Positions 2,770 through 26,430 of a stretch of DNA of 26,478 nucleotides are shown here, one piece after another. The stretch is from the IMG/VR virus record IMGVR_UViG_3300020580_000049, positions 1 through 26,478 of that record; one strand, 5' to 3'. The notes below the pieces were generated by a model. It saw only the letters and a list, made by a program, of their open reading frames with translations. It was not told the origin of the DNA and made no database searches. Position numbers and translations under genes: made by a program. The stretch comes from a virus. How positions within the stretch are numbered: the first letter of the stretch is position 1; each line of letters opens with the position of its first letter.

Positions 2770-3457
2770 TCCTATAAGTGGGTTACCTAGCCAATGTAGG
2801 TATGGAAATATAAGTTTTTCCCAGACTGGGGCTGATTTTTTGCTCTTGAATCTTTTTGAGCTGCTTGGAATAACAAATCCTTCTTACCTTGATGTTGGCG
2901 CATTCCATCCTACGGTTATAAGCAATACGGCTCTGCTTTACTCTCGCGGCTCACGTGGAGTTAATATAGAAGCAAACCCGGCGCTTATAGAGAATTTTTA
3001 TAAAGCTCGGCCTGAAGATTTAAATATTAATATCGGTATAACACCGTGTGGTGGTGAGGTTGAATTTTATAGGATTGATTCATTTTCTGGCCGGAATACA
3101 TTTGATCCCGAAGCGGCTCATGGATTTGTTCATGAGAACCCTAGCTTTCAAATTTCAGATACCTTGGTGCTTGAAACTATAACTTTAAATAAAGCTGTTG
3201 ATACTTATTGTAATGGGATTTTTCCGGATTTGCTTTTGATAGATATTGAAGGGCTAGATTTGAATGTATTAGAGTCAACTGATTTTAGCTCAAGCCATCC
3301 TAAGGTTATTTGTGTAGAAACAGTTGATTTTAAAGGCGAGAGTCGTTACAGAGATTTTGCTTATCTACTGCTTCTCAAAGGCTTCGTACCATATTGTCGC
3401 CTTATTGCTGATGCAATTTTTGTCTGGAACGAGAACGCAAAGGAGCTAAATAAATGA
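2756..3457 (+). CDS. FkbM family SAM-dependent methyltransferase
   Basis: This 233-residue protein shows the FkbM pattern. Motif I is YLDVGAFHP (44-52), an acidic residue ends the next strand (IEANP, 71-75), and the late motif DLLLIDIEGLDLNVLES (158-174) is followed by PKVICVETV. FkbM-type enzymes usually O-methylate sugars or small molecules using S-adenosylmethionine. There are two in-frame ATGs (2756 and 2759), and either gives essentially the same product. It overlaps the upstream TPR/glycosyltransferase-like gene by 14 nt and the downstream gene by 4 nt (ATGA), so it belongs to a tightly coupled series. The natural inference is methylation of the sugar added by its neighbour, but the sequence does not show the substrate. 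Confidence 0.88.
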   Translation: MMHIDPISGLPSQCRYGNISFSQTGADFLLLNLFELLGITNPSYLDVGAFHPTVISNTALLYSRGSRGVNIEANPALIENFYKARPEDLNINIGITPCGGEVEFYRIDSFSGRNTFDPEAAHGFVHENPSFQISDTLVLETITLNKAVDTYCNGIFPDLLLIDIEGLDLNVLESTDFSSSHPKVICVETVDFKGESRYRDFAYLLLLKGFVPYCRLIADAIFVWNENAKELNK

Positions 3458-4278: not shown

Positions 4279-4995
4279 ATGACTGTTCCTTTAGATATTA
4301 TAACTGATGCTTTAGAAAAGCTCGGGGTTTATTCTCCTGGCGAACCATTATCTGCTGCTGATGCTTCCCGAAGCTTACAGATGCTTAGCGATCTTATGGA
4401 TCAATGGGCCAATGATTCTATCCAACTATACTTTCTTCAAGCTATCGAAGCCAGTTTAATGGCGGGTACAAGTATTTATACTGTTGGCCAAGGCGGAAGT
4501 ATAAGTGCAGGTGCGCGGCCCGTCAAGGTAGTTATGGGCCCTGGTGTAGCTTCAGTTACAGTTGTAAGCACAACTACACCAGTGGATTCTGTTAGCTCTA
4601 TTGAATGGAATGCTATTTATAACACCCAAGATCCTCCACCTGTCGGGATACCGACAGCTATGTTTTATCAATCTTCGTTTCCTTTAGGGCTATTATCTTT
4701 GGTTCCAGTTCCAAGTACTGGTATGACGCTGACGTTTAGTGGTTATTATGGTTTAGTTAATTATGCGGCGAATTTAACAAGTCCAAATGTAACCTTGGCT
4801 CCAGGGCAGCAAGTGGGATTGGCTTCTAATCTTGCTATTCTTTTACATTCCTATTTTAGTATAGGAACTATTACGCAAGATTTAATAGCAGAGGCACAAC
4901 AATCTAAGACGACCCTTACGTTGACTAACAGACTCTCGCGTGCTATGTCGGCACGTAATGTTCAGCCGCAGACTCCAGCGGCTCCGAGACCCTAA
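4279..4995 (+). CDS. Tail accessory factor / head-tail adaptor, P22 gp4-like (copy 1)
   Basis: The 238-residue protein has the family pattern at its N-terminus: IITDALEKLGVYSPGEPLSAAD (7-28), then a helix ending in LMDQWANDSI (39-48), then a beta region with YTVGQGG. In P22, gp4 binds the portal as a ring and seals the packaged head. The C-terminal half (LVPVPSTGMTLTFSGYY, then a long helix and a NRLSR segment) fits the same fold. AGGA at 4265-4268 sits 10 nt before the ATG. The next gene encodes a second protein of the same family. There is no cysteine. The assignment is well supported by pattern and by the order coat, gp4, gp10. Confidence 0.87.
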   Translation: MTVPLDIITDALEKLGVYSPGEPLSAADASRSLQMLSDLMDQWANDSIQLYFLQAIEASLMAGTSIYTVGQGGSISAGARPVKVVMGPGVASVTVVSTTTPVDSVSSIEWNAIYNTQDPPPVGIPTAMFYQSSFPLGLLSLVPVPSTGMTLTFSGYYGLVNYAANLTSPNVTLAPGQQVGLASNLAILLHSYFSIGTITQDLIAEAQQSKTTLTLTNRLSRAMSARNVQPQTPAAPRP

Positions 4996-4997
4996 TT

Positions 4998-5004
4998 AAA
5001 GGAG
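4998..5004 (+). promoter_or_regulatory. Ribosome binding site that fixes a TTG start
   Basis: AAAGGAG, 9 nt upstream of the TTG at 5014, is one of the strongest Shine-Dalgarno matches in the window. It supports TTG initiation of the second gp4-like gene. Confidence 0.7.
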
Positions 5005-5013
5005 TAATTTTCC

Positions 5014-5739
5014 TTGGCTAATGCCCGCGAGGTTATCCAGGACGCGTTTGAATCTTTAAGGATTTATTCTCCTGGAGAATCTGTTCTTGACGCCGATATG
5101 AGTCGCGGGTTTGCTGTTCTTAATGATATGTTGGGCTCGTGGAGCAATGAATCATTAACTACTTTTGCAACTTTAGAACAATCATTAATTTTTACTCCAG
5201 GCAAATTTCAATATACAATTGGTGTCGGCGGCGATTTAGATACAACACGGCCATTGCGTATTAGGCACGGTTTTGGCGCGGCTTATATCCTTGATACCTC
5301 GGGAAACCGATACCCGCTGACGGTTATACAACAAGATTGGTGGAATTTAATAGGAAACATACTGCAGGTTAATGCTAATATTCCGCAATATCTTTATTAT
5401 GATCCTCAAAATCCCTGGGGGATTTTGAATTTTTATCCTATTCCTAACGTCGGTTATACAGCGTTTTGGGATAGTTATTTGCAATTTGAGCGCTTTGGGT
5501 CGCTTGAGGTTCATGTTTCGCTCCCACTTGGCTATGTTATGGCAATCAAGCGTAACTTGGCGCTTGAATTAGAGCCGTATTATCCCAACGCCGTGGTATC
5601 ACCTAAGCTTCAAAAAGCCGCTGAAACGTCGAAAGGAAATGTGAAGAGAACTAACTTTAGAGAAACTATAGCAAAATATGATGCTGAGCTTGTAAGTAAA
5701 AGTAGAGCTACCTATAATGTTTATAGAGACGGGGCTTAA
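5014..5739 (+). CDS. Tail accessory factor / head-tail adaptor, P22 gp4-like (copy 2), TTG start
   Basis: This 241-residue protein is a diverged paralogue of the preceding gene. EVIQDAFESLRIYSPGESVLDAD (6-28) and LNDMLGSWSNESL (37-49) align with VYSPGEPLSAAD and LSDLMDQWANDSI of copy 1, and YTIGVGG aligns with YTVGQGG. The start is taken as TTG at 5014 because a strong Shine-Dalgarno sequence (AAAGGAG, 4998-5004) lies 9 nt upstream and the conserved N-terminal motif begins at once; no ATG fits. The C-terminal half is helical and charged (KLQKAAETSKGNVKRTNF). Two gp4-type proteins in tandem could build two stacked rings or a mixed ring between portal and tail. Confidence 0.85.
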   Translation: MANAREVIQDAFESLRIYSPGESVLDADMSRGFAVLNDMLGSWSNESLTTFATLEQSLIFTPGKFQYTIGVGGDLDTTRPLRIRHGFGAAYILDTSGNRYPLTVIQQDWWNLIGNILQVNANIPQYLYYDPQNPWGILNFYPIPNVGYTAFWDSYLQFERFGSLEVHVSLPLGYVMAIKRNLALELEPYYPNAVVSPKLQKAAETSKGNVKRTNFRETIAKYDAELVSKSRATYNVYRDGA

Positions 5740-14701: not shown

Positions 14702-15132
14702 TACCAAAAATAATTATCGTCCCTATCGAATATCAACGATTCACCACTATTGGTGATTGGTATGAAGATAAATATGGGAATTTTACAATTTCAATCTCCT
14801 ATTTATATGATTGGAAATATGAATTTTTGGTCTTGATTCACGAATTAACTGAATGGGCTATTTGTCAATCAATGGGAGTTAAAACTCAAGCTTGCGATGA
14901 TTTTGACGGGCTTTGGGAAAGTGAGATTAAGAAAGGTATTCAAGATATTAATACCGAAGCAGGTTTTGATCGCCGGTGTCCGTACCGACGTGGGCACGTT
15001 TGGGGGGCACGAATGGAACGTTTATTCTGTTTCCTGCTCCGCGCCTCTTGGAAAGACTATTGTGAGTCGTGCGAACGTGCTATAAAGAATTATTCTAATT
15101 CTAAACAGAGTTCAAGTAATGCCTCTGTTTAA
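14698..15132 (+). CDS. Putative metal-binding protein with HELTE motif
   Basis: The 144-residue protein shows a helix with HELTEWAICQSMG (48-60), an acidic segment (DDFDGLWESE, 67-76) and a later conserved-looking motif CPYRRGHVWGARMERL (94-109). The pattern HEL.E...C...G, then D..FE, then PY..H..A...E is familiar from small phage and bacterial proteins of unknown function. The HE plus later His/Glu residues could form a zinc site, but the canonical HExxH is absent, so calling it a protease would go too far. The start ATG overlaps the end of the large ejection gene by 4 nt (ATGA), and it overlaps the racemase gene by 14 nt. It contains several cysteines. Confidence 0.65.
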   Translation: MIPKIIIVPIEYQRFTTIGDWYEDKYGNFTISISYLYDWKYEFLVLIHELTEWAICQSMGVKTQACDDFDGLWESEIKKGIQDINTEAGFDRRCPYRRGHVWGARMERLFCFLLRASWKDYCESCERAIKNYSNSKQSSSNASV

Positions 15133-15757
15133 AGCTACTCTAGGCATACTAGGCGGTATGGGCCTTAGAGCAACAAGTAATTTTCTTGATTGTCTGGTTA
15201 AAGAAATTACTGAAGTTGGCGTTACGGAAGATAGTGCGTTTCCTACCATAATTATGCTAAGTATTCCTTTACAAGAATGGGGAATTTTGGGATCGACAAA
15301 TAAAGATCATGTTAGCGCACAAGTTAATAATGGCTTGAAATGGCTACGTGAAGCCGGCGCAGATTATATAGCTGTTCCTTGCAACACAGTTCACGAGTTT
15401 ATAACCGATAAGCATGTGATTAACATTATTGATGAGACTTTAAAAGAATGTCGAGATAAAAATCTTGGCGTTCTTTGCTCCAATCAGACCAGAGAGTCAG
15501 GGTTATATGAAAGGAGTGGGTATAATATACAATATTACCCAAACCAATCTACAATCGATGGATTGATTGAAGCTGTTCAGCATGGGAAAAACCCTGATAT
15601 TAGTTTGATGCTAAATGCTGAGTTCTCTAATTGCTCTACTATCATCCTTGGTTGTACTGAGCTTTCGCTTTGTTCAAATATGAATCGTTGGGGGAATAGG
15701 ACTATTTTAGATTCAACTAAAATCTTGGCGAAGGCTTCTATAAAAGCCCTAATGTAA
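15119..15757 (+). CDS. Aspartate/glutamate racemase family protein
   Basis: The 212-residue protein has the family's N-terminal LGILGGMGLRATSNFL (8-23) and both catalytic cysteines in context: VPCNTVH (86-92, Cys88) and IILGCTELSL (175-184, Cys179). GVLCSNQTRESGLYE (117-131) matches the central region where the family has G-x-L-(A/G)-T-x-x-T-x-x-(S/G)-x-L-Y. These enzymes interconvert L- and D-Asp or Glu without cofactor using the two cysteines. Length is close to the usual 220-240. The gene overlaps its upstream neighbour by 14 nt and couples to the next gene by TAATG. An amino-acid racemase inside a phage morphogenesis operon is unusual; substrate preference cannot be read from the sequence. 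Maleate isomerase or hydantoin racemase relatives are possible alternatives. Confidence 0.88.
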   Translation: MPLFKATLGILGGMGLRATSNFLDCLVKEITEVGVTEDSAFPTIIMLSIPLQEWGILGSTNKDHVSAQVNNGLKWLREAGADYIAVPCNTVHEFITDKHVINIIDETLKECRDKNLGVLCSNQTRESGLYERSGYNIQYYPNQSTIDGLIEAVQHGKNPDISLMLNAEFSNCSTIILGCTELSLCSNMNRWGNRTILDSTKILAKASIKALM

Positions 15758-17166
15758 TGAAATATATCTTCTTTACATTCTCTGGGCATTCATTACCGAT
15801 AGCCAAGCGGTTGATTGATGAGGGCAATGAAGTCGAGGTCGGTCAAGTTTCAAGGCCCGAAAAGCTTAATGTCAAAGGCTGGCAGGCCCATAAAGAGACT
15901 CCAGAGGAACAACGCCGCCGGCTTTCACTTTATGATGGAATTATTGAAAAACAAGACGCCGATAAATTACTAAATAATCTTCGTTTTAACAAGGACAAAG
16001 AGGATATCTTTGTTGTTCTTGATCATAATAACCTTTGCGAATACGGTGAAAAATTAAATTCGATGGGATATATCGGTTTAATCCCGCTTCGTGAAGATTA
16101 TACAATGGAAAAAGAAAGAACGGCGGCGAAGAATTTTGTTGAAAAAAATTATTCTTTACTTCAAGTGCCTGAATCAAAAGAATTTAAGAAAGCCCAAGAT
16201 GGAATTGATTTAGTCGAAGATTCTGATGAGCTCTGGGTTCTTAAGAGTAATGGAAATATCGGTGATACCATAGTTCCACGAACTACTGATACCCAACTTA
16301 ATCATATGGTAATTATAGGCGCACTCAAGTGCGACTCAAAGGATTATGAAAAGGAGGGATATATACTTGAAAGGAAACTTAGATCGCCTATCGAATTTAC
16401 TCCACAGCTTGCATTTTGGAACGGTGAGCCGATTTACTCACATGTGGAAATAGAATGCAAGCCAATTGGGGCCGGAGACACTGGCCCCGACGGTGGAGGA
16501 GCTTTAAATCTAGTCGTCAAAACCAACCTAGACGACGAAATAAACGCTATGTTTTTCCCCCCAATTATCTTCGAGATGGCAAAGAAACGCTCGGGCTTAT
16601 TTATTTTCGACGCTGGGATACTTTATGACGAAGATGATTCAAGATTTTATTTTACTGAGTTCGCAGGGAATAGATGGGGTTGGGGTGGAATCTATTCGGA
16701 ACTATCTATGGCAACTAATAAGAATAGAAATGCGACCGAATATTTTGAGCGCGTAAGTGCTGGAAAGAGTCCTCTTCATTATAAATATGGTGCTACGGTT
16801 AGTTTATATAATATCCTCCCTGATAAGAAATTTGCGTCGTTGGAGTGTGACTGTTTGCCGATTTATTGGCGAAGAGCGGCAGATGAATATTTATGGTTGT
16901 ATCAGATAAGGAAAAATGAAGAAGGGGTTATTGTAAATACAGGATGTTTTAAAGATTCAATTCTTGGTTACGCTAGTGGATGTGGAGATTCATTATCGAA
17001 ATGTATCAGTTTAGCTTATAAAGTAATTGATAATTTTGCATTTAAAGAATTCCTTTTTAGACCTAAAGGTGATTTTTTATCTAAAGATTATCCAAGCTCA
17101 ATTTTAAATCGTTTAGAGGCGATTAAAGAAATATTAGATAATATAGAAAAGAAAGAAGCCGCATAA
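15757..17166 (+). CDS. ATP-grasp ligase, phosphoribosylamine-glycine ligase-like
   Basis: The 469-residue protein follows the layout of the PurD-like ATP-grasp enzymes. FFTFSGHSLPIAKRLIDEGNEV (5-26) is the Rossmann-like N-terminal part; KEDIFVVLDHNNL and GYIGLIP follow. ELWVLKSNG (158-166) holds the ATP-binding lysine, and YILERKLRSPIEFTPQLAFW (202-221) the hinge and start of the second lobe. DTGPDGGGALNL (241-252) corresponds to the LGPNTGGMG region, and FYFTEFAGNRWGWGG (297-311) to the metal-binding E-x-x-x-R segment. Such enzymes form amide bonds using ATP. Its TAATG coupling to the racemase gene suggests that the racemised amino acid may be its substrate. A role in purine synthesis seems less likely in this context. 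Substrate and acceptor are unknown. Confidence 0.8.
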   Translation: MKYIFFTFSGHSLPIAKRLIDEGNEVEVGQVSRPEKLNVKGWQAHKETPEEQRRRLSLYDGIIEKQDADKLLNNLRFNKDKEDIFVVLDHNNLCEYGEKLNSMGYIGLIPLREDYTMEKERTAAKNFVEKNYSLLQVPESKEFKKAQDGIDLVEDSDELWVLKSNGNIGDTIVPRTTDTQLNHMVIIGALKCDSKDYEKEGYILERKLRSPIEFTPQLAFWNGEPIYSHVEIECKPIGAGDTGPDGGGALNLVVKTNLDDEINAMFFPPIIFEMAKKRSGLFIFDAGILYDEDDSRFYFTEFAGNRWGWGGIYSELSMATNKNRNATEYFERVSAGKSPLHYKYGATVSLYNILPDKKFASLECDCLPIYWRRAADEYLWLYQIRKNEEGVIVNTGCFKDSILGYASGCGDSLSKCISLAYKVIDNFAFKEFLFRPKGDFLSKDYPSSILNRLEAIKEILDNIEKKEAA

Positions 17167-17673
17167 ATGAAATTAAAAATAATTCTATTTCTTGTCTTTA
17201 TGATATCGCTTTCTGCTCATGCTCAAGTTCCAGTATTTGTTGCGCCGGAGTTTATACAACATTTTTTTCTTACCAATGGTTCTGTTTGTGCTGGGTGTCA
17301 ATTGTTTGTTTATCAAGCTGGAACAACTACAAAAACTCCGACTTATATTGATAGTACAGGGACTACAACTAATACAAATCCGGTTATTATGAATTCTCGC
17401 GGGGAGCCACAAGCAGGAGCACCGAATGGATCTATTGGTATTTGGCTTGCTGCAGGGCTTTATAAAGTCGTACTTGCTCCAGCTAATGATTCTGATCCTC
17501 CTACTAATCCCATTTGGACAATTGATGGTGTCTCAAGTTCGCTTATTCAACCTACCGCGCCAGTAAGCTCGGTATCGCCTTGTGTTCCGGGTGAATTTGC
17601 TCAGGACACAAGTTTCTTTTATAGCTGTGTAGCTATAAATACTTGGAAACGTGTCGCGTTAAATTCGTTTTAA
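17167..17673 (+). CDS. Exported phage fibre-like protein with Sec signal peptide
   Basis: The 168-residue protein has a textbook Sec signal peptide: two Lys, a hydrophobic core (IILFLVFMISL), and a likely cleavage after AHA (residues 17-19). The mature part begins VPVFVAPEFIQHFF and then matches the common phage fibre module C-x-G-(C/G)-x-L-x-x-Y-x-AGTTT...YxDSTG...NPVxxxSxGEPxxGxxxxxIWLxxGxYKxxL (about 40-105), ending with WTIDGV. The C-terminal 40 residues carry a second common module, GEFAQDTSFFYSCVAINTWKRVAL. Cysteines come as close pairs. An export signal on a fibre module is surprising. The ATG directly follows the preceding stop. Likely displayed outside the cytoplasm or in the envelope if the signal works. 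Confidence 0.75.
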   Translation: MKLKIILFLVFMISLSAHAQVPVFVAPEFIQHFFLTNGSVCAGCQLFVYQAGTTTKTPTYIDSTGTTTNTNPVIMNSRGEPQAGAPNGSIGIWLAAGLYKVVLAPANDSDPPTNPIWTIDGVSSSLIQPTAPVSSVSPCVPGEFAQDTSFFYSCVAINTWKRVALNSF

Positions 17674-17677
17674 TCAT

Positions 17678-17681
17678 GGAG
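17678..17681 (+). promoter_or_regulatory. Ribosome binding site favouring ATG 17692 over GTG 17686
   Basis: GGAG lies 10 nt before ATG 17692 but only 4 nt before GTG 17686, so the ATG is the better-spaced start. Confidence 0.5.
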
Positions 17682-17691
17682 TGTAGTGGCT

Positions 17692-17943
17692 ATGAAAACA
17701 ATATTCGGAGTTATATTTACAGTTTCGCTAGGCTTCAGTCAGGTTGCTCTTTCTCAAGATGTTCCACAAACTCCTCCTAGTGATACAGAATATGATTCGC
17801 AACGTTTTACGTTGCTTAATGAACAGAATAAGTTCCTTACTATGACAATTCTTCGTGATCGGGCGCAAGCTAAAGAAACTGCAGCTTGGTGGGCCGAAGT
17901 TTGGAAAGCATTGCCTGATCCTAATAAAGTTGGAGTTAAATGA
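17692..17943 (+). CDS. Small exported protein of unknown function
   Basis: The preferred start is ATG 17692 (83 residues), because GGAG at 17678-17681 lies 10 nt upstream; a GTG at 17686 would only add Met-Ala and is too close to that site. The N-terminus (MKTIFGVIFTVSLGFSQVALS) is a probable signal peptide with cleavage near ALS/Q (21/22). The 60-residue remainder is polar and helical (EYDSQRFTLLNEQNKFLTM, then RDRAQAKETAAWWAEVWKAL). No cysteine is present, so no lipoprotein. It has the size of a spanin-like protein, but no lipobox or second partner is visible, so that idea is not supported. The stop overlaps the next start (ATGA). Confidence 0.65.
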   Translation: MKTIFGVIFTVSLGFSQVALSQDVPQTPPSDTEYDSQRFTLLNEQNKFLTMTILRDRAQAKETAAWWAEVWKALPDPNKVGVK

Positions 17944-18419
17944 AACTAATCTTTAAGACTCTTGTCTTAGCTTGTTTGGTAGCGTTAGTTTCAACTTCAG
18001 CTAACGCTACCTGTGAGCGCGTGGTTCAGAATGGAACTGTAATAAATGGTGCTCCGGTAGTTTTTATTACTGAATGCTTGATTGCTCGTGCTGGCGGCAG
18101 TGCTGGGAGTACAATTGCTAATGGCCTCCCTATGATTACCGACCTTGGTGTTATGGGGCCGTTTGGGATTATCGACGCTCCAATTACAGGGGCGTATCAT
18201 AAAGGCGTATTTAGCTGGCAAGGTAATAATCTTGTTTTAGCTCTTAATGGTCTTGGCGGCGCTGGCGTTCCAGGGCTTTGTTTATCAATTAATGGCGGGC
18301 AATTAATATCGCTTGGCGGCTCAAGTTGTGGTGGCGGAGGCGGGGGCGGCGACGCATTATTAATTCAAACTGGAAGCAAATTATTAATTCAAACTGGCAG
18401 TGTATTATTGATTCAGTGA
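17940..18419 (+). CDS. Exported glycine-rich protein with octapeptide C-terminal repeats
   Basis: The 159-residue protein starts with a Sec signal peptide (MKLIFKTLVLACLVALVSTSANA, probable cleavage after residue 23). The mature part has four cysteines (CERVV, ECLI, LCLS, SSCGG). Its beta-like segments (GVFSWQGNNLVLALNGLGGAG) resemble fibre or pilus-like modules. A glycine tract (SSCGGGGGGGD) leads to a C-terminal tandem repeat LLIQTGSK / LLIQTGSV / LLIQ. Short L-L-x-x-(T/E)-G-(S/D) repeats near the ends of phage virion proteins are familiar to me; the role is unknown. Its start overlaps the upstream stop by 4 nt. Confidence 0.65.
   Translation: MKLIFKTLVLACLVALVSTSANATCERVVQNGTVINGAPVVFITECLIARAGGSAGSTIANGLPMITDLGVMGPFGIIDAPITGAYHKGVFSWQGNNLVLALNGLGGAGVPGLCLSINGGQLISLGGSSCGGGGGGGDALLIQTGSKLLIQTGSVLLIQ
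18357..18416 (+). repeat. 24-bp direct repeat encoding LLIQTGSx (2.5 copies)
   Basis: Units at 18357-18380 and 18381-18404 are near-identical 24-mers, followed by a half unit at 18405-18416 that ends at the stop codon. They encode two and a half octapeptides. A likely slipped-strand or selected structural repeat. Confidence 0.8.
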
Positions 18420-18433
18420 GGAAATTTAATAGT

Positions 18434-21400
18434 ATGAAGAAATTAATCTCTTTCGTATTTGCTTCACTGGGTTTTATAAGTCCAGCGTTAGCTGATGGTA
18501 CAATTAACACATTAAATCCTGGTAATTCCCTGACTGGATCAGAGTTGATTCCAATGTTTCAGGGTAACAACCCTATGACGACAACAAACCCAGTAGCACT
18601 TGGAACTTATCTTAATGGGACCTTTCTTGTAAAAGGAAGCAATTTCATTCCAGGGGGAATGACAATATTAAATTATAATGCGTCTAATTTGACACTTCCT
18701 CCGGCTGCTGGATCTGTTCTACAAGTAATCGGTACTGATGGTGTTTCCGCAAGAATTGAAGTAGATTCTTTTAATACACCAGCGAAGCATGATGTGGTAT
18801 GTTACGGGGGAACTTTTGCTTCTAGGACTGGTGTATTAGGCGGAACCAATTGCGGTGGTTATGATGTCTTTGCTTACAATGGTACTTCTGCTATTGGTCC
18901 TTTGGCTGGCATAGGATTTTTCACATCTGAAAATCAATCATCCGGCCACGGAGGCATGGAGACGGTTTTAACTACAACTCCAAATGGAACCACTACAAGG
19001 ATTAATAGAGTTAAAATTACTAACGATGGAGCAATATTGGTTCCAGATACAGTTACTGGAGGAAGTCAAGGCCCAGGGACCATTAATATGGCAGGGTGTT
19101 TTGTTAATGGTGCTCCTTGCGGTGGTGGGGGCGGTGGATCTCCAGGAGGAATTACTAATAGTTTTCAATTTAATAACTCTGGCGCCTTTGGCGGTTCATC
19201 AAATCTACTCAATGGGGCTGGCGAGGTAGTTGTTAATTATAATTCCTCAACTTTACCGGCGCCTCTTGGTGGAACAGTTTTACAGATTGCCTCGCCGAAT
19301 TCTACCCTTACAAGGGCCGAGGTAGACGCATGGGGCGCCGGATTTGGACCTAATTGGACCACCAGATTTGCTCGGGGGACTGCTGCTGCACCGTCGGCGG
19401 TTCAAAGTGGAGATAACATTGGCGGATTTAATTCTTTCGGATACGGCGCAAGTGGATACTCAGTTAGCAATCGCGGTGGTTTTCGTGTAGTCGCAATTGA
19501 AAATTGGAACGATAGCGCTCAAGGAACCGAAGTCGATATTGATACTATAAATCTAGGATCGCTGAATTTAATTCAAGCCGCTAGGTTTTCCAGTGCTAAT
19601 GCTATCTTCAATCATAGCGGAGCAACACTGCCGACTCCGCTTCCTGGAACAGTTCACCAAATTGCTGGGCCTACTGGAAACAATGTCAGGGCTGAGCTAG
19701 ATTCTTGGGGAGTAGGATTTGGGCCTAACTGGACAACACGTTACGCTCGCGGAACTCCCGGTGCGCCATCGGCAGTGCAATTAGGGGATAATATCGGCGG
19801 ATTTAATTCCTTTGGTTATGGTGCAACCGGGTATTCCTTCAGCAACCGTGGTGGTATGAGAGTCCTCGCTACTGAAAATTGGACCGATACTGCACAAGGC
19901 ACCGAGACTGATATTGATATTACAAATACAGGAACTCAAACGTTAGCACAAGCAGCCAGATTTTCTAGTAATGGGTCTGTGATAGGCACACCTACTGGTA
20001 GTTTTCAAGGCCCTGGAACACTTAATATGGCAGGGTGCTTTATTAACGGCGTTGCTTGCGCGACATCTGGCGGCGGTGGTATAACTTGGCCAGCAACAAA
20101 TGATATTGTTATTTCTAATGGAACTAGTTCGCCTGCAGGACTTGCACCTGTTAATGGGTCCTTAGTTATTGGTGCTGGCGGAGTCTGGGGAACATTAGGA
20201 ATTGGGTTGAATACTTATGTTCTTACATCGAATGGTACTACTGCATCTTGGCAGCCTGCAAGTGGCGGCGGCAGTGGTACAGTTTCAAGCTGCTCGACTA
20301 TCTATGCGCTAGGTTATTACGCCTCGACTGGCACCACAATTTCATGCCTTCCGAGTTCTGGAACGCCAACAACTATATTGCATGGTAATACGGCAGGCCC
20401 AGCAACATACGGCCCGGTCAATCTTAGCACTGATGTATCCAGTCTATTGCCAGACGCGAATCTTAATCCAGCAGGGTTCGGGCCGGCTGGGAGTTATACC
20501 AGCGCGAATATTACGGTGAGCGCAACAGGGCGCATAACGGCGGCTGCCAATGGTGGCGTCGCAGGCAATTTCTTTACCACCAACGCGGCGACGACGGGCG
20601 GCCCAACTGTCTATGCCTTAGCACTGACAGGGTATGCAACCAATGCTGGGAATTATATCTGCACTGCATCATTTACCCCAACGAATGGCGCAAATCCCAC
20701 GCTTAATCCAAATACGACCGGGCCGAAACCAATTCAGCTTCTAACTTCGACAGGGCTTGTCTCATTAGCTGGCGGCGAGATCCCAAACGCTAAACCTGCG
20801 TGTTTTATTTATGATGGTACGAATTATATCTACCAATCTATACAGGTAGCTGCACCGCCATTATTTGCTACTGATACGGTAACTCTACCAAAGTGGGTTG
20901 GATGCCAGTCGTATGTTATCACGACTGCAGCGCAGACGATTACGCTTCCAACTTCAACCGGGCTCCCGACAGGTGGCTGTGTCAATATCACGACGATTGG
21001 TGTAACGGCGCAACTTGCACCAACCGGCGCTTCAGGTGACGCGATTGATAACGGTCAAGTTGGCGGCGGCGCTGCAAATGCGGCAATCACGCTACCGGCT
21101 GATTTTTCAGGGCAAGTGACTTATAGCGGAACCCCAGGCGTAACGGCGTTTTCAATTCCTCTTGGGCCGGTACAATACGCACCGTTATCTTGGGGAGTTG
21201 GAGCAGATCTATCGCTTAACACGGGTGGAATTGATTTCGTAAGATTTGCGACGCCACGTGTGGTTTACGGTGTCAAGTGTAAGAATAATACGCTAGCTGG
21301 CACTGCACAAACTATGACGTTTAAGTATCAGACTGATGCAGGCGGAACGATGGCTACGGGAACTACTATCTCTTCTGCGCCATTTGATATGAATGCAAAT

Positions 21401-21529
21401 CTTGGATTGGAACAAACGATTACCTTGACATCAAGCCCACTTCCCGTACCTGCCGCTTACTCTGTTGGAAGTACTATTAGCGGTAGTTCTACAGCAGGTT
21501 CCGGCCGCTGTCAGTACACATATAGATAA
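18434..21529 (+). CDS. Large tail-fibre-like protein with Sec signal peptide and repeated modules
   Basis: The start is ATG 18434 (1031 residues); the frame remains open upstream, but that stretch is the overlapping C-terminus of the previous gene. AGGA at 18419-18422 is a possible ribosome site. Residues 1-20 (MKKLISFVFASLGFISPALA) are a Sec signal peptide with cleavage before DG. Next comes the fibre leader TINTLNPGNSLTGSELIPM, then a diverged module (about 95-185) and two close copies of a 125-residue module (FGPNWTTR, GDNIGGFNSFGYGA, ENW-D-AQGTE). A motif QGPGTxNMAGCFxNGxxC occurs twice (19069-19120 and 20008-20060). The C-terminal half changes to GC-richer sequence and beta-rich content (TLPKWVGCQSYVITTAAQTI). 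I count 14 cysteines. A receptor-binding or surface fibre is likely; the export signal is unexplained. Confidence 0.75.
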   Translation: MKKLISFVFASLGFISPALADGTINTLNPGNSLTGSELIPMFQGNNPMTTTNPVALGTYLNGTFLVKGSNFIPGGMTILNYNASNLTLPPAAGSVLQVIGTDGVSARIEVDSFNTPAKHDVVCYGGTFASRTGVLGGTNCGGYDVFAYNGTSAIGPLAGIGFFTSENQSSGHGGMETVLTTTPNGTTTRINRVKITNDGAILVPDTVTGGSQGPGTINMAGCFVNGAPCGGGGGGSPGGITNSFQFNNSGAFGGSSNLLNGAGEVVVNYNSSTLPAPLGGTVLQIASPNSTLTRAEVDAWGAGFGPNWTTRFARGTAAAPSAVQSGDNIGGFNSFGYGASGYSVSNRGGFRVVAIENWNDSAQGTEVDIDTINLGSLNLIQAARFSSANAIFNHSGATLPTPLPGTVHQIAGPTGNNVRAELDSWGVGFGPNWTTRYARGTPGAPSAVQLGDNIGGFNSFGYGATGYSFSNRGGMRVLATENWTDTAQGTETDIDITNTGTQTLAQAARFSSNGSVIGTPTGSFQGPGTLNMAGCFINGVACATSGGGGITWPATNDIVISNGTSSPAGLAPVNGSLVIGAGGVWGTLGIGLNTYVLTSNGTTASWQPASGGGSGTVSSCSTIYALGYYASTGTTISCLPSSGTPTTILHGNTAGPATYGPVNLSTDVSSLLPDANLNPAGFGPAGSYTSANITVSATGRITAAANGGVAGNFFTTNAATTGGPTVYALALTGYATNAGNYICTASFTPTNGANPTLNPNTTGPKPIQLLTSTGLVSLAGGEIPNAKPACFIYDGTNYIYQSIQVAAPPLFATDTVTLPKWVGCQSYVITTAAQTITLPTSTGLPTGGCVNITTIGVTAQLAPTGASGDAIDNGQVGGGAANAAITLPADFSGQVTYSGTPGVTAFSIPLGPVQYAPLSWGVGADLSLNTGGIDFVRFATPRVVYGVKCKNNTLAGTAQTMTFKYQTDAGGTMATGTTISSAPFDMNANLGLEQTITLTSSPLPVPAAYSVGSTISGSSTAGSGRCQYTYR
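19250..19594 (+). repeat. Fibre module copy A of a 375-bp-period repeat
   Basis: In-frame partner of 19625-19969. The two 115-residue translations align without gaps and differ at about 31 positions in my hand alignment. Key shared motifs are WG-x-GFGPNWTTR and GDNIGGFNSFGYGA. A duplication within the fibre gene. Confidence 0.85.
19625..19969 (+). repeat. Fibre module copy B of a 375-bp-period repeat
   Basis: Second copy, exactly 375 bp downstream of copy A. It keeps the same length, frame and motif spacing, which fits duplication and divergence under protein-level constraint. A more diverged relative lies about 450 bp upstream of copy A, where the translation reads TLPPAAGSVLQVIG and RIEVDSF. 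Confidence 0.85.
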
Positions 21530-21544
21530 GAGCCGTTTAAAAGC

Positions 21545-22138
21545 GTGATTACACGACGTAGGCTTATCGCAAGTGCGCTCGCCGCTCCGGCTATTATTCG
21601 TCCGGCTTCAGCTAACTTATTGATGATGCCTGCTGCGGGTGGTGGTAGCTCCACAAATTTTATCACAGGTGAAACGTTAGGCGTGTTGAATAATAATGTC
21701 ACCGATCTTCTCGGCTTTATTATGACGACAGGAGCAACGCCCATTACGATTACGGATCTTGGTCGCTGGAAAATATCTGGTAATAGTCTAACGCATACGA
21801 TTTATATAATTGACATCGGCTCTGCTGGAATGACTAACCCCGGCACATCTCTAGGCTCTGCAGTTGTTAATTTATCTGGCGGGACAATAGGTGCGTTTAA
21901 TTATACAACATTGGGCTCGCCTGTAACGCTAGCAGGTAGTCATCAATATCTTGTTGTTTCATCAGAGACCGCTAGCGGAGATCAATGGTATGATCAGACG
22001 ACAGTCGTCACAACAACTACTGTCGCGTCTATTACGCAGTCTGCGATAATATCAGGTTCTAGTCCTACAGGAACATGGACAACAACCAGTATTGCTAATA
22101 CTGATTATGGTCCATGTGATTTTAAATATCATCTGTGA
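21545..22138 (+). CDS. Small Tat-signal protein with fibre-associated beta domain
   Basis: The 197-residue protein starts with GTG at 21545. Its N-terminus MITRRRLIASALAAPAIIRPASA has the twin-arginine pattern T-R-R-R-L-I, a mildly hydrophobic core and an ASA cleavage site near residue 23. Residues 38-197 form one beta-rich domain, with segments NFITGETLG, ITITDLGRWKISGN, LTHTIYIIDI and GSHQYLVVSSETASGDQWYD. The same domain recurs at residues about 241-402 of the next protein. The Tat signal implies export of a protein that folds before transport, which fits a compact beta domain. Function unknown; it may be a fibre accessory or a carbohydrate-binding module. Confidence 0.68.
   Translation: MITRRRLIASALAAPAIIRPASANLLMMPAAGGGSSTNFITGETLGVLNNNVTDLLGFIMTTGATPITITDLGRWKISGNSLTHTIYIIDIGSAGMTNPGTSLGSAVVNLSGGTIGAFNYTTLGSPVTLAGSHQYLVVSSETASGDQWYDQTTVVTTTTVASITQSAIISGSSPTGTWTTTSIANTDYGPCDFKYHL
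21656..22135 (+). repeat. Beta domain, first member of a pair shared with the next gene
   Basis: Encodes residues 38-197 of the Tat-signal protein. Segments NFIT, LG(R)W/YK, THxIYI and HQYLVVSSETASGDQWYD align with residues 241-402 of the downstream giant protein, so the domain is duplicated across the gene boundary. Confidence 0.7.
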
Positions 22139-22146
22139 GCTTTTAG

Positions 22147-25100
22147 ATGCGCCGCCGTGATCTATTAAAGATTAGTCCGGGGTTGCTGGTCCCGAAGATC
22201 GCTTTGGCGCGGCCTAAACATGGCGGCGGCGGTGCGGGGGCTCCTCCACCAACGCAGACTATTACAGCCGTTACGTTATCGAGTAATACCGTTGTGGGTG
22301 GCGCCGGATCAGCCAATACGGTAATTGGGACCGCAACCGTTGTGCTCTCACCATCGAGCCCAAGTGCAAGTGGTATTGTTTGGAGCCTAGCGGGAACTGA
22401 TGCAAGCCATTTTGTAATCAATTCATCGACGGGCGTTTATAGCGTAAGTGGCTCTGATATTACGCCAGGGGTTTATAATGATGTGGAATTTGTGCCGACA
22501 AATGTGGCTTACACAGGATCAGGAACACATTTTACAAAAACTATAACAGCAACTGCTGTTGCGACGCCAGTAGCTATAACATTCAATCCAGCATCGCCAG
22601 CTACGGTTTATGACACAGCGTTGTCCGGCGCGACAGTGAATATGCCTACTGTCACGATGTCAGATTCATCCACATTCACCGGAACGTGGGGGATACCGAC
22701 AAATCCGGGCGGATTGCTGGTATTTTCTGGAAGTAATCTTAACCTAACACGAAATCTATCGCCCGCTGATATTGGCACGCCGCTTTTTACTATTAGTGCC
22801 CTAGAACACTCGACCACGATTACAAATAATCTGACACTGAACATCACGGCGCCACCTGCAGGTGTTAATTTTATTACGTCGGTCACTGCCAGCACGAGTA
22901 TGAACACGTATGGGTTCCCACTCGGGTTTGCGTTCACAGTTGGCAGCTCACCCATTACCGTCTCTGCTCTTGGTCGCTATAAGGTCAATTCGGGCGATAA
23001 CCAAACACATTCATTATATCTGCTAGATCCTACAATTGTAGATCCAGGTGGGAAATATCGCGTTGTGGCCGGCGGTTCAGCATCGGTCAATATCGGCAGT
23101 GCAACAGTCAATACGTTCACATATGGCAGCGTAGTGAGTCCAACTACGCTCCTCACGGGACATCAATATATTCTGATCAGTACTGAAACTAATGGCGGCG
23201 ATCATTGGTTCGATCAAGGATGCGCTGTTACATCAACGGCTGATGCAGTGGTAAATTATCCCGTCTTCGTAAACGGCCCTGCGTTTAATCAGAACGTAAC
23301 GCCGAATGGTGGCGGGAATCATGCCTACGTGCCGCTTGATTTTATCTATTCGGTTGGCGCCACGGCGGTTGCTACAATACAGGGTGGCCCTGGCTCGGTG
23401 GCCGGGCCAATAGTTAACAATGCGCAGGCGCTATTCTATCCGACATTAACCTCCGGCGGGATCGGCACTGTAATCAGCGGATCAGCCGTTATTATGAACG
23501 CGACTTGGGTCAATGGAGGGCCTGAGCTGTCTTTCCCCGGCGTATCCGTCACTGGACAGTGGATGCGAGATAACGAGATCCCGATAAGTCCCGCCATTAC
23601 ATCGACTGGGGCGATAATCTCTGGTGGACATTTCAACGGACAACCAGGTTGGTTTACTTATACTTTAGATACAACTACGATTCCAGATGGGGCTCATACG
23701 GTTTACTGTCGGATTATTGATAGCGGGACCAGTCCTGCTCTTTCGTGCTATCAATGGGGATCGTGGGGGAAACCCTTTATTGTATCGAATGGGAGCCTTA
23801 ATATTGGCAATCAGACCATTTGGACATCGCAGTATTCAATAGGGCCGCGCTCACAGGTGCCAAAGCCTGATAGTGTCGCTTATAATAGCATTCCCAATCC
23901 AGTGAATGCTACGTATCCATATCCCTATGCGGTTTCGGCGACAGCTACGGCTCGGGGCGGCGATCTGACGCGGTTTAGAGATGTAACGACAATTTGCGCC
24001 GAGGCCATTAATGCCCCAAGAGGCGGGGAATATCTTGGGCCGCCACAGTTTTGCACGACGCTACCAAGTAGCGGCAGCGGCGGAGTGTTTGTTGGGCATC
24101 AAGATCCGCTAGTTGACGCTGGAAGTAATGCGGGCGCGTATCCCTATGTAATTCGGCAGAATTATCCAGATGGCACGAGACTAAATAATCAAACGGCGAA
24201 TATTAGTACTTTCGTTGAGGCGCCAACGTGGTTGACTGGTGCTGGCGCGTGGCTCGGGTGCAGTGTTGAGGGTCGATTTTTCATCACCGACCAGTTTGGT
24301 AATACGACTACTCTAGCGGGATATACGCGCGATCGCACAGTATTAACGGTAGATCCAACTAATAGCACCGATAGTGAGTCCGATCTTACGCGGGTTTTAA
24401 TTGGCACGTTTCCAACGGACGTTGATCTTGGCGGCGCGACTGATCTGGTTGTTGATCCGCGAAATGATCATATTGTTTATGTGCTATGTCAGAATGCTGC
24501 CAATTGGCTTGCTAAGATCACGCTGACGGGGACTAGTCTGGCGGGCGGTGTGACAGCGGCAGTAACTGTTTATGCTGGCTTGCCGGGAGCGCCCGATGCA
24601 TATGTCGAGGCGCCCGGAACAGGCGCGACGAACGCACGGTTTTCTCAACCCATTAGCTTAGTAATCGTTGGCACAGTAAGCAATACGGCGGCGCCTAACG
24701 GCGATCCGGTCGGTACGATCTACATTGCGGATCAGGGCAGCGCTGATCCGGCGCTCCCAAATAATAGTGCCATCCGCCGAATATCAGCTAACGGTTTAAC
24801 TGTTGATACGCTATATGGCGGTACTGTAGGCCCAACGCTGCCAACTGGAGCGCAAGTCAACGATTATACGGTAATCACCATTACGTCGATGAGTTGGAGC
24901 GCGACGGGCGGCGGGACGGGGACTATCGTATCAGCTACGCCGATAACCTATGTTTCCGCGATTGGGTGTTCCGTAGCTTTTCTAGGTGTGGTGAATTCAG
25001 GATCGGCTCCCGTAAACTCTAGCGATGGCGGACCAGCGGGATCGCCAAAGTTTTATGTAAATGGGTTTACTAATAATACCCATTTTACTATTGCTATGCC

Positions 25101-26430
25101 GGGGACTTCTGGTGTTGACTTCAATCCGGGGCTCTTTGGCGGGACCATTCAAATCTTTAGCTATGCTTCTGATAAGTACAGTCCGCCCGGCACCGTATCG
25201 CTAACCGGGCCAGCCGGCTGGACTGCTTTCCCCGGTTTTATTCGATGGAGTTCAGCACAGCATTTAGTTTTGTCAGAGTTTTGGACAGATAATGTACGGG
25301 ACATCAATCTGGCGGCGAATACAATCAGGCGTATAGGAACGTTTGATAATCGCATTCAGGCGTTAGATCCGGCGCCGGGTAGCTGGCTGGGGATGGACTG
25401 TGATTATGCTGGAGTGCTTGGCCCAGTTGATGATATTATCTTAGCTAAGTTCCAATCCAACGCGAGCGCCGCTCATTACGTCTGGCGCGTAGGGTTTGAT
25501 AGTACTGGTTTCAATGGCGGAAGTGCCTATACTCAAGGGAGCTTCAGTGACTTTGGCTCCTTTCCAACTATTGGCCAATCATCGACACTTTTAGCGGGAG
25601 CGGGACATTACCCCTGGGCATGGTCATTCTCGCGCACACAAGGCCGCGCAATCTCGACCGGTACAGCAAATGCGGCGCCCGCATTTCACCGCATTATGGA
25701 ACCTGGCGATGTAGTAGTTAATATCGGCACCAGTCAGAACATTGATTTCGCGAAATGGACGAATGGTAATAATATATGGAATCAGGGCACCGTAACGGCG
25801 TTTCCCTGGACTGCGCGACCGGCGTTTAGCGCACTTTGGGGTTTTTGGGGTGACGGGCAAATCCTGGGACACACTTGGGATGACTTAATGCACAACACGG
25901 CATTAGGAAGCTTTGCGTCAAGCTCCCCAGGCGACGCAGGCGATATTGCACTTGCGAATTATATCCGCGCCGGCATGGGCGGATCAGTTCCGCGCCCTGA
26001 GATCACCGGCAATGATATGCGGGATCTGATTTATTTTATTAGGCGAAATACTCTGCTTGGTAGTGGATTAGTTGGTGGGCCGGCTTTGGTTGTTCCGGGT
26101 GCGGATGATGCTAACGTTACGCCGCCGTTGATCCTGACGTTAAGCGCGGTGCATAATGCGCCCGTAGGCGGGTTTGAATCCCTCACCGTAACGTGGACAA
26201 CTGATACCTCTTGTATCGGATGCGCAATGGCAGGAACAAGCTCGCAGCTTGGTCAGCCGTGGCCGACAAATATTCCCTCAGAGATTGAAAGTAGCTACGG
26301 CACGAGCCATAGTGTTACCATTGCGGCGCCTAATGGTATCAAGCTGGGCGCGTCGCCGATATATTACCGCGTGATTGCTAAGGACATGGCAGGAAATTGT
26401 GTCTATTCAAACACCCTATCGGTGGCATGA
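22147..26430 (+). CDS. Giant Tat-signal surface/fibre protein with beta-propeller-like region
   Basis: The 1427-residue protein begins MRRRDLLKISPGLLVPKIALA, a close match to the Tat consensus (R-R-x-L-L-K), with possible cleavage after ALA (residue 21). A Gly-rich linker is followed by a cadherin/Ig-like domain (about 38-140: VWSLAGTDASHFVINSSTGVYS) and another beta domain. Residues about 241-402 repeat the single domain of the preceding protein. The middle is Ig-like. Residues about 760-1065 resemble NHL or SMP-type beta-propeller blades (ATDLVVDPRNDHIVYVL; GTIYIADQGS; NSAIRRIS). The C-terminal 100 residues look fibronectin-like (TLSAVHNAP, LTVTWTTDTS, YYRVIAKD). I count 12 cysteines. Codons are GC-richer than the left of the window. 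Perhaps a large receptor-binding fibre or an adhesin-type surface protein; no enzymatic motif was seen. Confidence 0.72.
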   Translation: MRRRDLLKISPGLLVPKIALARPKHGGGGAGAPPPTQTITAVTLSSNTVVGGAGSANTVIGTATVVLSPSSPSASGIVWSLAGTDASHFVINSSTGVYSVSGSDITPGVYNDVEFVPTNVAYTGSGTHFTKTITATAVATPVAITFNPASPATVYDTALSGATVNMPTVTMSDSSTFTGTWGIPTNPGGLLVFSGSNLNLTRNLSPADIGTPLFTISALEHSTTITNNLTLNITAPPAGVNFITSVTASTSMNTYGFPLGFAFTVGSSPITVSALGRYKVNSGDNQTHSLYLLDPTIVDPGGKYRVVAGGSASVNIGSATVNTFTYGSVVSPTTLLTGHQYILISTETNGGDHWFDQGCAVTSTADAVVNYPVFVNGPAFNQNVTPNGGGNHAYVPLDFIYSVGATAVATIQGGPGSVAGPIVNNAQALFYPTLTSGGIGTVISGSAVIMNATWVNGGPELSFPGVSVTGQWMRDNEIPISPAITSTGAIISGGHFNGQPGWFTYTLDTTTIPDGAHTVYCRIIDSGTSPALSCYQWGSWGKPFIVSNGSLNIGNQTIWTSQYSIGPRSQVPKPDSVAYNSIPNPVNATYPYPYAVSATATARGGDLTRFRDVTTICAEAINAPRGGEYLGPPQFCTTLPSSGSGGVFVGHQDPLVDAGSNAGAYPYVIRQNYPDGTRLNNQTANISTFVEAPTWLTGAGAWLGCSVEGRFFITDQFGNTTTLAGYTRDRTVLTVDPTNSTDSESDLTRVLIGTFPTDVDLGGATDLVVDPRNDHIVYVLCQNAANWLAKITLTGTSLAGGVTAAVTVYAGLPGAPDAYVEAPGTGATNARFSQPISLVIVGTVSNTAAPNGDPVGTIYIADQGSADPALPNNSAIRRISANGLTVDTLYGGTVGPTLPTGAQVNDYTVITITSMSWSATGGGTGTIVSATPITYVSAIGCSVAFLGVVNSGSAPVNSSDGGPAGSPKFYVNGFTNNTHFTIAMPGTSGVDFNPGLFGGTIQIFSYASDKYSPPGTVSLTGPAGWTAFPGFIRWSSAQHLVLSEFWTDNVRDINLAANTIRRIGTFDNRIQALDPAPGSWLGMDCDYAGVLGPVDDIILAKFQSNASAAHYVWRVGFDSTGFNGGSAYTQGSFSDFGSFPTIGQSSTLLAGAGHYPWAWSFSRTQGRAISTGTANAAPAFHRIMEPGDVVVNIGTSQNIDFAKWTNGNNIWNQGTVTAFPWTARPAFSALWGFWGDGQILGHTWDDLMHNTALGSFASSSPGDAGDIALANYIRAGMGGSVPRPEITGNDMRDLIYFIRRNTLLGSGLVGGPALVVPGADDANVTPPLILTLSAVHNAPVGGFESLTVTWTTDTSCIGCAMAGTSSQLGQPWPTNIPSEIESSYGTSHSVTIAAPNGIKLGASPIYYRVIAKDMAGNCVYSNTLSVA
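22867..23352 (+). repeat. Beta domain, second member of the pair
   Basis: Encodes residues 241-402 of the giant protein. NFITSVT, SALGRYKVN, QTHSLYLLD and GHQYILISTETNGGDHWFDQ match the smaller upstream protein segment by segment. The two copies are diverged, so the duplication is not recent. Confidence 0.7.

What the first reader, a model, noticed from the sequence alone, without database searches (positions are those of the whole stretch)
17167..26430. Six consecutive phage genes carry export signals, four Sec-type then two Tat-type
All six genes from 17167 to 26430 begin with a plausible signal peptide. Four have Sec-like leaders (AHA/Q, ALS/Q, ANA/T, ALA/D cleavage patterns), and the last two have twin-arginine leaders (TRRRLI and RRRDLLK). 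The mature parts look like ordinary phage fibre modules, which are normally assembled in the cytoplasm. The regular run rules out a chance hydrophobic start in one gene. Possible explanations: the proteins are displayed on the infected cell as decoys or for superinfection exclusion; fibre parts are assembled in the periplasm; or the leaders serve as membrane anchors for virion morphogenesis. The use of both export routes in neighbouring fibre genes is, to my knowledge, not a described phage strategy.
Basis: partly seen in the sequence, partly recalled or inferred. Interest (0 to 1): 0.85.

Follow-up and report, generated by a model that had tools for sequence, protein, structure and literature searches.

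The report
Phage tail proteins with export signals
An uncultured bacterial virus appears to send its tail spike and fibre-like proteins out of the host cytoplasm through the cell's two export gates before they could join the virus particle, a route not found described for tailed phages in the papers searched.

Summary
The six leaders are real and belong to a larger pattern. A near-identical record (G001, 91 kb, 99.99%) extends the run to ten leadered genes and has a second cluster of five before the terminase. A second phage (G002) repeats it, with the Tat-type leader conserved on the homologue of gene 6. Two more phages (L090, L100) have runs of Sec-type leaders.

Gene 1 is a Sec leader joined to a tailspike head-binding domain (profile match to cyanophage Pam1, E 1.6e-18). 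25 of 28 related modules lack a leader, and cleavage would restore about the N-terminus that leaderless homologues start with. Mature leadered proteins have twice the cysteine of controls from the same records and an even number in 24 of 27, against 51 of 124: a disulfide signature.

Independently, a query without the leader found 26 copies of a BcepC6B-gp19-type fibre family in Burkholderiaceae; 24 follow an in-frame Sec leader.

Export is therefore very likely. What follows is inferred: oxidative folding in the periplasm, then docking on virions at lysis (0.5); soluble decoys or surface proteins are the main rivals. SignalP was unavailable and no virion proteomics was found.

The parts
17167..17223 (+). 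Gene 1 Sec leader (19 aa)
   Evidence: scorer 5.64; absent from 25 of 28 homologous modules
17236..17550 (+). Gene 1 tailspike head-binding domain, with a C-x-x-C pair (VCAGC)
   Evidence: profile of 15 homologues vs PDB: Pam1 tailspike head-binding domain E 1.6e-18; AF2 model (mean pLDDT 69.6) vs Pan3, P22 and Pam1 tailspike head-binding domains
17551..17673 (+). Gene 1 C-terminal 40 aa
   Evidence: phrog_17312 tail protein, profile 753-792 of 792, E 2.6e-7
17692..17943 (+). Gene 2, Sec leader 17692-17754 and a small charged mature part, no family
   Evidence: scorer 3.64, no Cys in mature part; no PHROG hit
17940..18419 (+). Gene 3, Sec leader 17940-18008, mature part with 4 Cys
   Evidence: scorer 5.34; Cys count
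18434..21529 (+). Gene 4, Sec leader 18434-18493, large fibre-like protein (by eye), 14 Cys
   Evidence: scorer 4.44; Cys count; C-terminal part (20504-21526) 58% identical to a leadered protein of G002; no Pfam or PHROG hit
21545..22138 (+). Gene 5, Tat-type leader 21545-21613, mature domain weakly like choice-of-anchor R
   Evidence: TRRRLI, Arg in c-region; NF041539 E 0.0018, below cutoff
22147..26430 (+). Gene 6, Tat-type leader 22147-22209, large mature protein
   Evidence: RRRDLLK, Lys in c-region; homologue L007:9766 also Tat-type (RRSILG), 37% identity over a 1008-aa part
22840..23352 (+). Gene-5-like domain inside gene 6
   Evidence: 36% identity, E 1.2e-26 (coordinates converted from G001)
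15757..17166 (+). Ligase-like gene abutting gene 1; the block is continuous
   Evidence: gaps 0, 18, -4, 14, 15 and 8 bases; the window gene itself has no Pfam or NCBIfam hit, counterparts in L028, L039, L041 match GARS/PurD ATP-grasp models

Best explanation
This phage, with P22-like head and tail genes, makes its tail spike and fibre-like proteins as precursors with cleavable leaders. They are expressed with the late head and tail genes, cross the inner membrane by Sec (most) or Tat (genes 5 and 6), lose the leader, and fold in the oxidising periplasm, where disulfides form. Cleavage exposes about the natural N-terminus of the docking module. When holin and endolysin open the envelope, the folded spikes meet the DNA-filled particles and dock, as the last step of assembly. 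Supported here by sequence: leaders, their recurrence, the docking domain, the cysteine signature, the gene order. Inferred: actual cleavage, disulfides, late expression, timing and docking at lysis.
For: Leader runs in G001, G002, L090 and L100. At threshold 3.9, G002 block 6 of 6 leadered against 10 of 105 outside, G001 block 6 of 9 against 15 of 110. Of ten G001 genes of 200 aa or more that are rich in G, S, T and N, seven are leadered by the scorer and gene 6 is Tat-type; the other two are the ejection protein and an unknown 221-aa gene. Gene 1, L090 and L100 carry a leader directly before a tailspike head-binding domain. The invariant Pro is at mature residue 8, 7 and 8 (window, L090/L098, L100), and at residue 7 in 7 of 14 leaderless proteins typed in (range 6-11; L028 misread). 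Cysteine 1.78% pooled in 29 leadered proteins against 0.83% in 74 controls. Even counts 24 of 27, inclusive set 27 of 31, against 51 of 124 leaderless controls (Fisher 3.7e-6 and 2.6e-6) and 9 of 23 leaderless fibres. BcepC6B-gp19-type family: 24 of 26 places found with a query without the leader follow an in-frame leader; mature Cys even in 18 of 23. 10 of 10 such proteins tested, of 29 held, match tail-fibre PHROGs.
Against: No experiment. No SignalP or TatP; gene 6 fails my scorer; no Tat-signal HMM hit. 25 of 28 head-binding modules do without a leader. Most leadered proteins of these runs have no family: of ten scanned from L098, L100, L007, L084 and G001 only two hit a PHROG (phrog_26190, unknown function), and none of five more from G001 did, so 'fibre' is by eye for them. 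G001 exports other genes too (15 of 110 outside the block) and has a small leaderless tail-like gene (79504, phrog_9648 E 0.00047). In Burkholderiaceae prophages the main spike is leaderless and only the accessory fibre is exported, sometimes beyond the lysis genes. The parity set was hand-chosen and cleavage sites were set by eye.
Confidence: 0.5

Rival explanations
1. Decoy or receptor-capping: exported receptor-binding domains fill the periplasm or outer surface, or are released at lysis, and block receptors so that progeny or rivals do not adsorb to the dying cell or debris.
For: In BcepC6B gp19-type proteins the leader and a conserved stretch of about 33 aa stand where tail fibres have their N-terminal part; several match only the C-terminal part of fibre profiles. 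The same C-terminal domain ends real tail fibres of Klebsiella and Dickeya phages.
Against: Gene 1 and two counterparts keep a virion-docking domain, useless for a decoy. G001 shows no large leaderless fibre gene to serve the virion, judged by N-termini and composition. No lipobox Cys at +1 in the six leaders, unlike known exclusion lipoproteins (comparison recalled).
Confidence: 0.22
2. Accessory or lysogenic-conversion proteins: the phage exports adhesin-like proteins that change the host surface; the fibre resemblance is only module sharing.
For: Gene 5 weakly resembles an extracellular anchor-type domain and gene 6 holds a related one; in some prophages the leadered gene lies beyond the lysis genes (L135, L137, genes named by eye); Lom of lambda is a known exported gene between spike and fibre genes (PMC12309495, passage).
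Against: In the window the genes follow the structural genes with gaps of -4 to 18 bases; nearly the whole block is leadered in two phages.
Confidence: 0.17
3. The leaders are uncleaved signal anchors that tether fibres to the inner membrane for assembly of virions there.
For: Hydrophobic N-termini; L009:13052 has a longer hydrophobic stretch and an uncertain site.
Against: A-x-A type sites in most; the predicted mature N-terminus about coincides with that of leaderless homologues.
Confidence: 0.06
4. Chance or artefact: hydrophobic starts without export.
For: Background of leader-like starts in this phage is 14-16%; 9% of shuffled leaders pass.
Against: Recurrence in several phages, 24 of 26 in an independent family, cysteine parity.
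Confidence: 0.03

Closest known systems
P22 / Sf6 / Pam1 / Pan3 tailspike head-binding domain
   Same: Gene 1 mature domain matches in sequence (Pam1 1.6e-18) and in predicted fold
   Different: 25 of 28 related modules seen here are leaderless; here a Sec leader precedes the domain, the rest of the spike is missing, and the domain bears a C-x-x-C pair
Burkholderia phage BcepC6B gp19 and Xanthomonas phage PBR31 orf035 (annotated tail fibre / structural protein)
   Same: Fibre-type protein behind a Sec leader, between the spike and lysis genes
   Different: One accessory gene per phage, no docking domain, no Tat; the PBR31 paper passages seen name a signal peptide only on another gene
Exported phage proteins of known role: SAR or signal-peptide endolysins, spanins, Lom, exclusion lipoproteins
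   Same: Phage use of the host export pathways (PMC6116005 passages; PMC12309495 passage; exclusion lipoproteins recalled)
   Different: Those are lysis or surface proteins, mostly single genes; these are runs of spike and fibre-like genes, with no lipobox
Filamentous phage coat proteins
   Same: Virion proteins sent through Sec (recalled, no call)
   Different: Membrane-embedded coat of extruded phages; here apparently soluble spikes of a tailed phage

Membership tests
Sec signal peptides | Basic n-region, hydrophobic core, A-x-A type site | tested here: met
   Genes 1-4, scorer 3.64-5.64; not SignalP
Tat signal peptides | S/T-R-R-x-F/L-L/K motif, weak h-region, basic residue in c-region | tested here: met
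   Genes 5 and 6 and two in G002: 4 of 1404 genes with RR motif plus hydrophobic core, cut set post hoc; gene 6 has R at the S/T position
Tat signal peptides | Hit to curated Tat-signal HMMs | tested here: not met
   No hit at E <= 1 in Pfam or NCBIfam for genes 5 and 6; HMMER filters may drop short leaders
Tat signal peptides | Export depends on TatC | not testable with these tools
   needs reporter fusions
Tailspike head-binding domain (P22/Pam1 type) | Sequence and fold of the domain | tested here: met
   (gene 1 only; model mean pLDDT 69.6)
Tailspike head-binding domain (P22/Pam1 type) | Attached to virion | not testable with these tools
   no proteomics
BcepC6B gp19 family | Mature N-terminal LLNPAGSTSGQAI motif | tested here: not met
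   Not seen by eye in the window genes; gene 4 has only a loose LNPGNSLTG likeness
Superinfection-exclusion lipoproteins | Lipobox Cys at +1 | tested here: not met
   +1 residues are Q, Q, T, D, N, R
Endolysins / spanins | Lysis domains | tested here: not met
   No such Pfam or PHROG hit in the six; a GH25 lysozyme lies downstream in G001

The most novel reading that the evidence does not exclude
Some tailed phages divide virion assembly between two compartments: heads and tail tubes in the cytoplasm, and the complete set of receptor-binding spikes in the periplasm through Sec and Tat, disulfide-bonded and processed, with the two halves joining at lysis.
Probability: 0.4. Interest if true: 0.93.

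Novelty: new variant of a known kind. Interest (0 to 1): 0.8.

Why it matters
Tail fibres and spikes of tailed phages are taken to fold and assemble in the cytoplasm. If whole sets are exported first, phage assembly has a periplasmic stage, host Sec, Tat and Dsb factors become determinants of virion infectivity, and receptor-binding proteins can use disulfides. It also offers a cheap way to find unnoticed fibre genes: a leader in front of fibre modules, present in public cultured phages such as BcepC6B.

Tried and rejected
Uninformative: AF2 of the gene 6 C-terminal 1008 aa (pLDDT 29); PDB sequence search with it (0 hits); genome-contig scan with the gene 4 C-terminal profile (no relative); cultured phages for the gene 4 C-terminus and the L007 Tat protein (no match); 385 Alphaproteobacteria for the L007 Tat protein (0, no positive control); PHROG and Pfam scans of ten leadered proteins of the runs (two hits to phrog_26190, unknown function; in Pfam one repeat of unknown function above its cutoff); 398 genomes sampled across the phylum for the gp19 motif (2, both also in the Burkholderiaceae search), so that family looks narrow. 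Host of the window phage: not found.

Rejected: lipoproteins (no Cys at +1); the TTG 18326 start of gene 4 (puts the leader inside the protein). Scorer calls judged weak or false and not used as leadered fibres: L039, L054, L066, L086, L106. L101 and L103 have an in-frame upstream extension with a broken hydrophobic stretch, which the scorer rejects; they are counted as leaderless.

Literature: searches (plus 50, 53, 94) showed no report of exported tail fibres in their listings; the library lacks most subscription journals and preprints.

Rows dropped: 80017 and 29102 (G001), 102106 (G002), two L090 genes, and L084 and L085 were left out of the first parity set (27 with Cys of 29); the inclusive set is 27 of 31 with Cys of 38. 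L004 (leaderless, cut by contig end) is not among the 28 modules. In one search gene 6 was cut one residue late; no Cys is affected; the site of 27555 is uncertain. Controls are called ORFs and may include spurious ones.
Full report
What is in the window. The record is a 26,478-base virus contig. Its left part matches P22-like head and tail genes: major head protein, two tandem adaptor-like genes, head closure and an ejection protein. The six genes in question follow, with gaps of 0, 18, -4, 14, 15 and 8 bases, so they look like part of the late operon. The true start of gene 4 is ATG 18434, and gene 2 most likely starts at ATG 17692.

Are the leaders real? A scorer written here (basic n-region, 8-residue hydrophobic core, A-x-A type site) accepts genes 1 to 5 (5.64, 3.64, 5.34, 4.44, 4.61) and rejects gene 6. 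At 3.9 it accepts 15 of 110 genes outside the block in the same phage (which include the second cluster below) and 13 of 560 genes in related loci. It accepts 1662 of 18000 shuffles at 3.6. Five or more of six has a chance of 6e-4 at the first background and 2e-7 at the second, both at 3.5. Genes 5 and 6 carry a twin-arginine motif, a weak hydrophobic core and a basic residue near the site (IIRPASA, VPKIALA), the usual marks of Tat signals (recalled). Of 1404 genes of at least 100 aa, 13 have the RR motif near the start and four also have a hydrophobic core of 1.6 or more (a cut set after seeing the values): these two and two in the equivalent run of another phage. Curated Tat-signal models did not hit. 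SignalP was not available.

The run is longer, and recurs. A public contig (G001, 91,468 bases) is 99.99% identical over 19.3 kb. It continues the run with genes at 27555, 29102, 29275 and 30225 (two small leaderless ORFs lie between, 27332 and 28799), then a GH25 lysozyme gene. It has a second cluster of five leadered genes (80017 to 83907) before the terminase and portal genes. Of ten G001 genes of 200 aa or more that are rich in G, S, T and N, seven score as leadered and gene 6 is Tat-type; the other two are the ejection protein and an unknown 221-aa gene. A small leaderless tail-like gene exists at 79504 (phrog_9648, E 0.00047). A second phage, G002 (105,196 bases), has leaders on 6 of 6 genes of its block (94873 to 103580), against 10 of 105 outside. 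Two of them are Tat-type. One of these (L007:9766) is the homologue of gene 6: 37% identity over a 1008-residue part, and both Tat-type. The gene 4 C-terminal domain is shared at 58%. Two further phages have Sec-type runs: L090/L091 (one phage, two contigs) and L100.

What the mature parts are. Gene 1 is a tailspike head-binding domain. A profile of 15 homologues matches the Pam1 tailspike head-binding domain at 1.6e-18 and Pan3 tail spikes, and the AF2 model (mean pLDDT 69.6) matches Pan3, P22 and Pam1. Its last 40 residues match the very end of a tail-protein PHROG. Gene 4 looks fibre-like by eye but has no family hit. Gene 5 is weakly like an extracellular 'choice-of-anchor R' domain (E 0.0018, below cutoff), and gene 6 holds a related domain. 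Genes 2 and 3 are unassigned. Most leadered proteins of the other runs also lack a family. So 'ordinary fibre modules' is right for gene 1 and only plausible for some others.

Leader gain on a docking domain. Among 28 distinct head-binding modules in the fetched loci, three have a leader directly in front: the window, L090 and L100 (L090 scores 3.69, below my usual threshold, and is accepted by eye). 25 have none. Predicted cleavage leaves 7 or 8 residues up to the invariant proline, where 7 of 14 leaderless proteins typed have 7 (the rest 6 to 11, L028 misread). Cleavage would thus about restore the natural N-terminus. All three leadered modules have two cysteines; 2 of 25 leaderless ones do. 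In the window and L090 the pair is C-x-x-C (VCAGC, ACSGC) where several others read LAGG; L100 differs. Whole mature proteins with this module have 2.1 to 2.7% cysteine in the three leadered cases and 0 to 1.4% in the 25 leaderless ones (p 0.003).

Cysteine signature. Exported proteins of Gram-negative bacteria tend to carry even numbers of cysteines, strongly in E. coli and less so in B. pseudomallei (PMC7678975, passages seen). For 29 mature leadered proteins from four phages, cysteine is 1.78% pooled against 0.83% in 74 other genes (p 1.9e-4). Even counts: 24 of 27 with any cysteine, against 51 of 124 leaderless controls and 9 of 23 leaderless fibres. Adding the leadered genes first left out gives 27 of 31. 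Other leadered genes of G001 outside the runs give 6 of 8, not significant. The set was hand-chosen and sites set by eye. Six of the 29 have cysteines in the leader, so the count depends on cleavage.

An independent family with named hosts. Some relatives have a leaderless spike followed by a leadered fibre gene. These include cultured phages BcepC6B (gp19, annotated tail fibre) and Xanthomonas phage PBR31 (orf035, annotated structural), and a Paraburkholderia silviterrae prophage. I searched 398 sampled Burkholderiaceae genomes with the mature N-terminal stretch only, the leader left out but for its last residue: 23 genomes, 26 places, one of them a row of the query. 24 of 26 are directly preceded by an in-frame Sec-type leader (23 by the scorer, 3.47 or more; one by eye). 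The other two, both in one genome, have the hydrophobic stretch but the ATG is out of frame. A sample across the phylum gave 2 of 398, both already in the first set. Of 351 pairs among 27 proteins, 186 align only near the N-terminus and 81 nearly in full: a conserved N-terminal peptide with swapped C-terminal domains, as in fibres. Ten of these proteins (of 29 held) were scanned and all ten match at least one tail-fibre PHROG, several of them only through the C-terminal end of the profile. The same C-terminal domain ends tail fibres of Klebsiella and Dickeya phages. So in this family the leader and a short peptide stand where the usual N-terminal part would be. Mature cysteine counts are even in 18 of 23.

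How it most likely works. Export is well supported by sequence. Beyond that I infer. The exported gene 1 keeps a virion-docking domain, G001 shows no large leaderless fibre gene, and the genes follow the structural genes closely. That favours spikes that fold and form disulfides in the periplasm and dock on particles at lysis. In P22, tailspikes are known to be added last and in vitro (recalled, no call). Decoy or surface roles remain possible, above all for the accessory gp19-type genes, and the two roles may coexist.

Prior knowledge. No paper describing exported tail fibres or spikes was seen in the listings of searches. Passages read: PBR31 (PMC10975493) notes a signal peptide only on an esterase. 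PMC3426561 treats BcepC6B gp15 and names gp18 and gp16 as structural. PMC12309495 mentions lambda Lom as an exported gene between spike and fibres. PMC6116005 covers exported endolysins. PMC13412088 reports partial dsbA effects on Klebsiella phages and explains them by receptors. In PMC3556154 and PMC8951688 the passages concern lysis proteins. PMC12860723 has no mention of signal peptides.

Noticed in passing
window 15119-17166: An Asp/Glu-type racemase (PF01177, 4.6e-13) is followed directly by a ligase-like gene that abuts gene 1; counterparts of that gene match PurD/GARS ATP-grasp models and sit right before the tailspike in L003, L028 and L039, and 217 bases before it in L005. The window gene itself has no hit. 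Role unknown.
   Followed up: partly
G001:80017-83907 (L018:17-3907): Second cluster of five leadered genes just upstream of the terminase, one with mature start near ANLFMTVTSGGGG.
   Followed up: partly
window 21614-21650; L009:13052; L018:2774; L007:8992, 9766: The motif (N/R/G)x?L(L/F)M occurs at seven places (eight hits, one counted twice) in the called genes of G001 and G002; five of the seven lie at the predicted cleavage sites of leadered proteins, Sec or Tat. Possibly a docking peptide.
   Followed up: partly
L108 and L131 (one unnamed Burkholderiaceae genome): Two prophage copies of the gp19-type gene have the start out of frame with the leader at an A-tract; phase variation or decay.
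   Followed up: no
window 4279-5739: Two tandem paralogues of an adaptor-like gene (both phrog_12985, weaker hits to head-tail adaptor Ad3).
   Followed up: no
window 1414-3457: TPR/glycosyltransferase-9 protein and FkbM methyltransferase between head and connector genes; G002 seems to have similar genes after its head protein (by eye).
   Followed up: no
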